The position numbers and the translations under genes were made by a program. From assembly GCA_003696155.1 (NCBI GenBank), contig RFFP01000014.1, forward strand, positions 1 to 64,000: a DNA stretch of 64,000 nucleotides, in the 5' to 3' direction. This document shows, piece by piece, positions 9,673-12,062 of this stretch. Origin of the DNA: Acidobacteriota bacterium (GTDB taxonomy: Bacteria; Aquificota; Aquificia; Aquificales; Aquificaceae). The notes under the pieces are model-generated. The model was not told the origin of the DNA. It searched no databases and was given only the letters and a program-made list of their open reading frames with translations. Position 1 is the first letter of the stretch; each line of letters begins with the position of its first letter.

Positions 9673-9887
9673 TTTTACCTCCTTTTCTTTAATATCATAG
9701 CTCAGCATCTTGGTGAGCGCAATTACAACTCTTTACTTAGAGAATAAGTGTATCTTATATGTGCTATGTCTAATAATAACCGTCTAAACTTTAACGTTAT
9801 TTTCATAAGTTGCTGTGGCTCAAGCTTTTGAAGATGTTTATTGGACAAAGCAGTTTATAATCCAACAAAGCTAATGGAAACACAGGA

Positions 9888-9893
9888 TATAAT
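9888..9893 (+). promoter_or_regulatory. -10-like box before the TnpB-like gene
   Basis: TATAAT ends seven bases before the ATG at 9901, the same leaderless spacing as in many host genes of this window. It decides the start chosen for the TnpB-like gene. Confidence 0.45.
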
Positions 9894-9900
9894 ACAACCC

Positions 9901-10773
9901 ATGGAAGTTAGAAGGAGCCTACCTTTCTCCCTAGAGTTTGCCAACACTGGAAAGAAAAACTTCCTCTATGAGCTACGGAAGGAATACAAAAGAGTAATTG
10001 AGCTTCTTTTAAAGCTTGGAGCAAAGAAAAAGAAACTAGCTTATGAAGACACAAAGCTCATAGATAGCTGGCTTTCCGCAAGATACAAAGGCTTTGCACT
10101 AAAACAAGCACAATCTATGCTAAAGTCTTGGATAAAGAAGCCTGAGATAAAGAAGCTCCCTATCAAGCTTGATAGCAGGTTCTTTAAGTTTGAAAAAGGT
10201 AAAAACAGCTTTGATTACTGGCTACTTATAAGAGGGCCAAGAAAAGAAGAGTGGATAACCTTTCCAGTAAAGAGTTATGACTATGCTAAGGGCTATTTTG
10301 AAAACTGGCAAAGGGCGGACTTTGTTGAGATTAAAAAGCTAATAACCACTTCAGATGGTCAAACTTATGGAAGGGAGATAAAGGAGATAATTGAGAAGAG
10401 AATAGACAGGAAAGAACAAGGTTCTAAACCTTTTAAGAGGGCTAAACATTTTCTAAAGACTGAGATAAACAGGATTTTGAAATCCGTTATAGATGGAAGT
10501 TTTTCACCAGTTTTTGAGAACTTGAAGAACCTCAAGAAAGGTAAAGCCAAAGGGTGGGTAAGGTCTGTAAACAGGAGATTTAATCACTCTCAGTATACAA
10601 GCAGGGCTTGTCCTGTGTGCACCTGCACAGACAAGCGGAACCAAAAGGGTAAATGTTTTAAGTGTGCCAGCTGTGGCTATAGTGCGCCTGCAGACTACGT
10701 TGGTTCCCTAAACATTCTCCTTAGGTTTACGCCTGCGAAACTTGTTCCTATAAAATGGAATAATTGTCTGTAG
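9901..10773 (+). CDS. TnpB-like protein (IS200/IS605), RuvC-I motif missing
   Basis: The family is the RNA-guided transposon nuclease TnpB. Visible are a basic helical N-terminal half, the KKLITTSDGQTYGREIKEII stretch that normally follows RuvC-I, a RuvC-II-like FENLKNLKKGK, a zinc finger (CPVC and CASC) and a RuvC-III-like ADYVGSLNILL. The expected RuvC-I segment with its catalytic Asp (a G-D-G-K type motif) is absent: DFVEI joins directly to KKLITT. The helices between RuvC-II and the zinc finger also look shortened. At 290 residues it is well below the usual 370-420. A longer TTG start exists at 9841. No TnpA is present and it ends two bases before mutL. It is probably a decayed element, but the frame is open throughout. 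Confidence 0.75.
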   Translation: MEVRRSLPFSLEFANTGKKNFLYELRKEYKRVIELLLKLGAKKKKLAYEDTKLIDSWLSARYKGFALKQAQSMLKSWIKKPEIKKLPIKLDSRFFKFEKGKNSFDYWLLIRGPRKEEWITFPVKSYDYAKGYFENWQRADFVEIKKLITTSDGQTYGREIKEIIEKRIDRKEQGSKPFKRAKHFLKTEINRILKSVIDGSFSPVFENLKNLKKGKAKGWVRSVNRRFNHSQYTSRACPVCTCTDKRNQKGKCFKCASCGYSAPADYVGSLNILLRFTPAKLVPIKWNNCL

Positions 10774-10775
10774 GA

Positions 10776-12062
10776 ATGGGAACTATATTCCTTCTTCCTG
10801 AAGAGGTAAGGAGCAAGATATCTGCGGGCGAGGTAATAGAGGGACCTGCAGAGTGTGTCAAAGAGCTGATGGAAAACTCCCTAGATTCTGGTGCAACGAG
10901 AGTGGAGGTGGAGGTATTAAAGGGGGGCAAAAGGTACATACTCGTTGCAGACAACGGTGAGGGTATAGCATCTGAGGATATCGAGAGAGCCATACTCGGT
11001 GGAGCAACCAGCAAGATTAGAAGTTTTGAAGACCTTGCCTATCTACGTACCTATGGATACAGAGGTGAAGCCCTGCACACCATAGCTTCTGTAAGTAAGA
11101 TGGTTCTAAGGTCAAGGTTCTTTCAGGAAGATATGGGGCGAGAGATAAGGGTAGAAGGTGGGAATATAAAAAACATAAGGTCTATAGGTATGCAGGTGGG
11201 TACGCAAGTGGAAGTCTTTGATCTCTTTTACAACCTCCCCCTCAGACAGGCTTTTATGAGTAGGGAAGATACAGAGAGAAACAGAATATACAAAGTGTTT
11301 AAGCTTCTTGCCCTTGCAAACCCTCACGTTAGCTTTACGCTGAAGGCAGAGGGCAGGACAGTAATGAGCTTCACAACCTCACAGCTGCCGGAGAGAGTAG
11401 AGGACGTTTTAGGCGGAAGGTATGAGCATCTTAGCCATGAAAGGGACGGTATAAAGCTGAATGTGTTCCTATCTGTTGAAAAGGGTAAAGGGGAGGTCTA
11501 TCTCTTTGTAAACAGAAGGCCCGTGTTTAACAGGGGATTGGTAGAGTACCTTAAAAAGCTAACGGGTAAAAAGTACAACTGCCTCTGCTACTTAGAGCTC
11601 CCTCCCTATCTTGTAGATGTGAACGTGCACCCTAAAAAATGGGAGGTAAAGCTCAAAGTTGAGGGTAAGATAAAGGAAATGATAAGAGAAACCATTAGAA
11701 AGGTAAACTATCCAAAGCCTCCATCCCTTATAAAGCAGGAAGAGGTAAAGTATAAAGTAGAGCCACGGCTCATAGGCATATTGGAGGACACCTTCATCCT
11801 TGCCGTATACGGAGACTATCTTTACTTTTTTGATCAACACCTTCTTTCGGAAAGGTACAACTACGAAGTTAAAAAGGAAAACCCTGACAGAGCTTGCAGG
11901 TCTTCCATCAAAGCGGGTCAGAAGTTGGATGAGGAGACAGCTAGGGAACTTCTCAAAAGATGGCTTTACCTTGAAAACAGGGAGGTATGCCCTCATGGAA
12001 GACCTATATACTATAGGCTTTATCTGGGTGAAATATACAAAAAACTTGGAAGGAGTTACTGA
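10776..12062 (+). CDS. mutL: DNA mismatch repair protein MutL, compact form
   Basis: MutL links mismatch recognition to strand incision. The GHKL ATPase motifs are present: [24 protein letters not shown] and [14 protein letters not shown]. The C-terminal nuclease metal site [12 protein letters not shown] (residues 353-364) fits DQHA(X)2E(X)4E apart from Ala to Leu, and CPHGRP is at 405-410. The total is 428 residues, like the roughly 425-residue Aquifex protein and much shorter than the usual 600 or so, because the linker is nearly absent. ATG 10776 gives the family N terminus; an in-frame TTG at 10764 is possible. The stop is directly followed by the hisF ATG. Confidence 0.94.

What the first reader, a model, noticed from the sequence alone, without database searches (positions are those of the whole stretch)
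9834..10775. TnpB-like open frame without RuvC-I, placed two bases before mutL
The protein keeps its N-terminal half, a RuvC-II-like FENLKNL, a zinc finger and RuvC-III-like ADYVGSLNIL, but DFVEI joins straight to KKLITTSDGQ where the catalytic Asp of RuvC-I should lie. A second shortening occurs between RuvC-II and the zinc finger. Both losses keep the frame open over 290 codons and a TATAAT box stands seven bases before its ATG. It could be a decaying IS200/IS605 remnant, or a nuclease-dead TnpB kept as an RNA-guided DNA binder, as described for TnpB-derived repressors. It could also have brought or altered the promoter of mutL.
Basis: partly seen in the sequence, partly recalled or inferred. 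Interest (0 to 1): 0.6.

Follow-up and report, generated by a model that had tools for sequence, protein, structure and literature searches.

The report
Broken TnpB element splitting mutL's start
A mobile DNA element carrying a damaged TnpB gene has landed inside the very first codons of the DNA-repair gene mutL, and the tip of the element now supplies mutL's start codon; the TnpB itself looks like an ordinary decaying remnant and not a new RNA-guided regulator.

Summary
The reading frame is real: 9841-10773 (+), ATG 9901, stop two bases before mutL's ATG 10776. Intact relatives in this genome and in sister species show what is missing: 31 aa carrying the RuvC-I strand and its Asp (GIDIGY), 25 aa between RuvC-II and the zinc finger, 11 aa near the N-terminus, and 7 aa encoded by a conserved right-end hairpin. 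A second copy (contig 32, upstream of rpmB) shares the 25-aa and 7-aa losses but is frameshifted. The frame shows no sign of retention beyond its family background, has no second guide target, and is unlikely to fold as RNase H, so 'RNA-guided binder' is not supported; a recent, internally deleted IS200/IS605-type element is. The unexpected part is the position. In sister species mutL reads TATCTTATAT-N4-ATG-CGT-ATA. Here that promoter and native ATG remain at 9751-9768, and about 1.02 kb of element lies between native codon 1 and codon 3 or 4. mutL's present ATG and next two codons come from the 3' arm of the element's terminal hairpin, which covaries in 14 copies. mutL is otherwise intact, so its translation is probably coupled to the tnpB remnant (stop TAG, two bases, ATG).

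The parts
9742..9768 (+). Native mutL 5' region left of the insertion: TATCTTATAT promoter element (9751-9760) and native ATG (9766-9768)
   Evidence: Aligns with the mutL upstream region of six same-genus species when the two flanks are joined; short matches found 4-11 bases upstream of the mutL match in G004, G006, G009
9769..10786 (+). Inserted IS200/IS605-type (tnpB-only) element, internally deleted, about 1.02 kb; ends accurate to a few bases
   Evidence: Empty-site comparison; right-end comparison with other copies
9796..9854 (+). 59-bp stretch 90% identical to contig 37:45693-45751, probably a left-end fragment
   Evidence: assignment as left end is inferred
9888..9893 (+). TATAAT seven bases before the tnpB remnant's ATG, spacing typical of a leaderless gene
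   Evidence: no -35 partner found by consensus scan; leaderless spacing in Aquificae from PMC3160421
9901..10773 (+). tnpB remnant, 290 codons, lacking RuvC-I and three other segments (open frame begins at 9841)
10333..10334 (+). Approximate junction of the 31-aa deletion that removed the RuvC-I strand and Asp (between VEI and KKLITTSDG)
10585..10588 (+). Approximate junction of the 25-aa deletion between RuvC-II and the zinc finger, shared with the contig 32 copy
10730..10731 (+). Approximate junction where the 21-nt upstream right-end hairpin (RELIVPL codons) is missing, shared with the contig 32 copy
10740..10780 (+). Terminal right-end hairpin: 13-position stem that covaries among copies (12 of 13 pairs form here); its 3' arm contains mutL's ATG
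10776..12062 (+). mutL, 428 codons; ATG GGA ACT from the element, native sequence from about 10787; NTPase motifs intact

Best explanation
An IS200/IS605-type element with a lone tnpB, already shortened inside, inserted between the native start codon and codon 3-4 of mutL. Its tnpB lost the RuvC-I strand and other parts and is a decaying, nuclease-dead remnant. mutL survived because the right end of the element carries an in-frame ATG (GGA-ATG-GGA-ACT) in the 3' arm of its terminal hairpin. The new start has neither a Shine-Dalgarno sequence at normal spacing nor a -10 box about 12 bases upstream, so mutL is most likely transcribed through the element from the native promoter or the TATAAT at 9888, and translated by coupling to the tnpB remnant, whose stop lies two bases before the ATG. 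Shown by sequence: the deletions, the insertion point, the origin of the start codon. Inferred: loss of protein function, read-through transcription, translational coupling.
For: Deletions against five relatives. Empty site: joined flanks align with the mutL start of six sister species, native ATG at 9766. All right ends of the family finish in GGAACT[AG]T, so ATGGGAACTAT at 10776-10786 is element sequence; the contig 32 copy has the same GGAATGGGAACTAT before a different flank. The right-end stem covaries in 10 distinct sequences. A sister copy in the same genome shares two deletions and is frameshifted; G005 holds several fragments and a copy with two stops. The remnant keeps 106 of 123 family-invariant residues, as does the stop-containing G5 copy, against 106/117 for C15 and 108/118 for G7a. 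A frame of this length stays open by chance in about 20% of simulations at 37 substitutions. mutL is single copy with conserved motifs.
Against: All the remnant's indels keep the frame (1, 2, 7, 11, 25, 31 codons), which is uncommon for neutral decay, although the finding was picked because the frame is open. On the window branch 7 of 13 polarised changes against contig 32 are at third codon positions, a weak hint of constraint. Coupling has no direct evidence. Insertion end points are uncertain by a few bases. Only one genome of this species was available.
Confidence: 0.77

Rival explanations
1. A TldR-like, nuclease-dead TnpB retained as an RNA-guided DNA binder that represses a target gene.
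For: The frame is open, RuvC-I Asp is lost, the zinc finger and a terminal hairpin are kept, and two in-frame deletions are shared by two copies.
Against: The first strand of the RNase H fold and a RuvC helix are deleted rather than the active site mutated; a conserved right-end hairpin is lost; the sister copy is broken; the presumptive guide matches only its own flank in mutL, other matches being at the level of the reversed control; no associated accessory gene and no orthologue at the site.
Confidence: 0.05
2. The tnpB remnant is kept under selection only as a translated leader cistron for mutL: its protein is useless but the open frame and the TAG-GA-ATG junction are needed for mutL translation and to avoid polarity.
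For: mutL is intact, its new start lacks a normal ribosome site and lies in a hairpin arm, stop and start are two bases apart, and all indels keep the frame.
Against: Two of the in-frame deletions predate or are independent of the mutL insertion, since the contig 32 copy has them; openness is compatible with chance over a short time.
Confidence: 0.25
3. The insertion has effectively switched mutL off or down, and the lineage is a recent mismatch-repair mutant.
For: Native start separated from the gene by about 1 kb; window mutL is among the more divergent of the genus (mean identity 0.604 against 0.64-0.69 for most).
Against: The frame and all NTPase motifs are intact, and G012 mutL is equally divergent without an element in its start region.
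Confidence: 0.13

Closest known systems
IS200/IS605-type elements with tnpB and no tnpA (IS1341 group)
   Same: tnpB with a palindromic terminal region; insertion apparently without target duplication; no Y1 transposase in this genome
   Different: Internally deleted; its end now forms the start of a host gene
PATEs and core-deleted IS605-type transposons (Haloquadratum walsbyi, PMC3119063)
   Same: Non-autonomous derivatives with internal deletions that keep the ends
   Different: Much of tnpB is still present as an open frame
TldR, TnpB-like nuclease-dead repressors (PMC13418256 and the work it cites)
   Same: TnpB homologue without a complete RuvC catalytic triad
   Different: By the paper's account TldRs have an inactivated RuvC nuclease domain without apparent loss of guide RNA and DNA binding, and associate with non-transposon genes; here parts of the fold are deleted and none of those associations is seen

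Membership tests
TnpB / IS200-IS605 element | Homology to TnpB along the protein | tested here: met
   54-68% identity to the C15 copy over aligned parts; Pfam TNB domain
TnpB / IS200-IS605 element | RuvC catalytic triad D-E-D | tested here: not met
   RuvC-I Asp deleted, Glu and second Asp kept; so it is a TnpB-derived remnant, not a functional TnpB nuclease
TnpB / IS200-IS605 element | Palindromic right end shared with other copies | tested here: met
   13-position covarying stem in 14 copies
TnpB / IS200-IS605 element | Insertion without target duplication | tested here: inconclusive
   Joined flanks fit an empty site but the ends are ambiguous by a few bases
TldR | RuvC domain present but active site inactivated | tested here: not met
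   Whole 31-aa and 25-aa segments of the RuvC region are missing
TldR | Retained right-end guide RNA scaffold | tested here: inconclusive
   Terminal hairpin kept, preceding hairpin lost; no Rfam family match
TldR | Guide matching a target elsewhere, or association with a non-transposon gene | tested here: not met
   18-base guide matches only mutL itself with fewer than three mismatches in a 1.47-Mb draft genome; mutL association explained by insertion
TldR | RNA and DNA binding by the protein | not testable with these tools
   Needs expression

The most novel reading that the evidence does not exclude
A lineage of TnpB without RuvC-I, spread as at least two copies with shared in-frame deletions, whose protein still binds its right-end RNA and regulates mutL, onto whose start it has moved its own terminal hairpin.
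Probability: 0.05. Interest if true: 0.7.

Novelty: new member of a known kind. Interest (0 to 1): 0.33.

Why it matters
It is a clean natural example of an IS200/IS605-type element that did not destroy the gene it entered, because its own end carries a start codon in the right frame. The gene is mutL, so expression of mismatch repair in this lineage may now depend on a tnpB remnant, which can be tested directly. It also warns that an open, truncated TnpB next to a host gene need not be a domesticated regulator.

Tried and rejected
TldR-like repressor: rejected on deleted fold elements, no other guide target, broken sister copy. Rfam search of 9700-10900: only chance matches to unrelated RNAs. 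Consensus promoter scan: no plus-strand sigma-70 pair and no terminator. dN/dS: synonymous sites saturated, so only coarse. Relatives in the genome-contig collection: one weak locus. The 59-bp repeat on contig 37: the neighbouring gene there is a broken ferredoxin-type membrane protein; it remains uncertain whether the repeat is an element end. Fold prediction was not run: most relatives came from a source not listed as accepted, and a single-sequence model would say little. Right-end pattern search beyond near-exact copies is at background level. The Nature 2024 TldR paper is not in the library.

Full report
WHAT IS THERE. The frame 9841-10773 on the plus strand is open for 310 codons; the start homologous to the family is ATG 9901, leaving 290 codons. 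TATAAT lies at 9888-9893 and the stop is two bases before the ATG of mutL at 10776. The last 45 residues or so match TnpB and Cas12f zinc-finger models, and the protein fails the curated TnpB cut-off that an intact relative passes.

RELATIVES. The genome (1.47 Mb, 37 contigs) holds a nearly complete copy cut by a contig end (C15) and a broken copy on contig 32 between thyX and rpmB. A sister species, G007, holds three intact copies of about 369 aa, 90-92% identical in DNA over about 1.2 kb, and G005 holds a copy with two stop codons plus fragments. No Y1 transposase is found in this genome; in the genus only G007 has one.

THE DELETIONS. Against C15, G7a-c and G5 the window protein lacks 31 aa including KPKGIDIGY, that is the RuvC-I strand and its Asp; 25 aa between RuvC-II and the zinc finger; 11 aa in the N-terminal half; and 7 aa, RELIVPL, which are encoded by a 21-base palindrome near the right end. 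In the solved AsCas12f1-like relatives a weak local match aligns GIDIG of the intact copy with the RuvC-I motif GIDLG. The contig 32 copy shares the 25-aa and 7-aa losses and is 91% identical over 326 bp, but it carries frameshifts and large deletions. The shared losses mean that the shortened form was copied, or was homogenised by gene conversion; I cannot tell which.

SELECTION. Synonymous sites are saturated or nearly so against all intact copies. Of 123 residues invariant in the five relatives the window keeps 106. Leaving out each test copy in turn, the stop-containing G5 copy keeps 106 of 123, C15 106 of 117 and G7a 108 of 118. In the 3' region shared with contig 32, 13 changes fall on the window branch, 7 of them at third positions; 9 fall on the contig 32 branch, 1 at a third position (counted by me from the list, leaving out ambiguous sites and the first few bases). 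A frame like this stays open by chance in about a fifth of simulations at 37 substitutions. All indels keep the frame, which is suggestive but biased by how the finding was chosen. I conclude that the frame is recent debris and that retention is not shown.

THE SITE. In same-genus species mutL starts TATCTTATAT-N4-ATG-CGT-ATA-AAT-CTT-CTG, with the promoter element so close to ATG that the mRNA is probably leaderless. In the window the same promoter element and ATG are at 9751-9768, followed by element sequence. Joining 9771 to 10785 gives an uninterrupted alignment with six sister species. The short divergent upstream leader also aligns in most of them. The element therefore lies inside the first codons of mutL.

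THE START CODON. The right ends of 14 copies end in GGAACT[AG]T and form a 13-position stem with several compensated changes, for example A-T, G-T and T-A at position 5 and C-G or T-A at position 7. In the window the 3' arm is CTGTAGGAATGGG: mutL's ATG is part of it, and codons GGA and ACT follow from the element; homology to MutL proteins of the same genus begins at residue 4. Folded alone, the window end prefers a competing structure; 10725-10790 has z -3.6 against shuffles. The remaining 425 codons of mutL are intact with NTPase motifs conserved. There is no Shine-Dalgarno sequence at normal spacing and no TATAAT-like box near position 10764, so I infer translation coupled to the tnpB remnant.

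WHY NOT A TLDR. TldRs are described as TnpB-derived proteins with an inactivated nuclease domain and no apparent loss of guide RNA and DNA binding, often linked with non-transposon genes (PMC13418256). Here core fold segments and a right-end hairpin are gone. The sequence right of the element, which would be the guide by analogy with ISDra2 reRNA (PMC8612924), matches only mutL itself; other genomic matches have three mismatches and are as frequent as in the reversed control.

VERDICT. Observation confirmed; interpretation partly supported. The TnpB is an ordinary internally deleted remnant, comparable to core-deleted IS605-type elements described in PMC3119063. The insertion that replaced mutL's start codon is the noteworthy part, and whether MutL synthesis depends on the remnant is a direct experimental question.

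Noticed in passing
L092 / contig 32:135330-135812 (-): Second degenerate copy lies directly upstream of rpmB; its right end stops two bases before TATAAT, separating that box from whatever stood upstream. Most relatives have a leader with GGAGG; here and in G005 rpmB looks leaderless.
   Followed up: partly
L096 (G009 contig 43:6561-6614): A right end of the same family sits just upstream of secA, again ending next to a TATAAT box close to the start codon.
   Followed up: partly
G003, five contig ends (L132-L136): Right ends of the family, three exact and two with one mismatch, lie within about 60 bases of contig ends; G003 probably carries several nearly identical copies lost in assembly.
   Followed up: partly
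L091 (contig 37:45452-45922): Fragment of a polyferredoxin-type membrane protein gene that is complete in G007 and G013 is truncated here and preceded by the 59-bp repeat shared with window 9796-9854.
   Followed up: partly
L093 (G007:C1, about 424500-426050): In G007 the RusA-like frame downstream of one intact copy begins with codons inside the element's right end, another possible start supplied by the same end.
   Followed up: no
L071 (G012 mutL): The C-terminus of G012 MutL diverges abruptly after CPHGRP, as if frameshifted.
   Followed up: no
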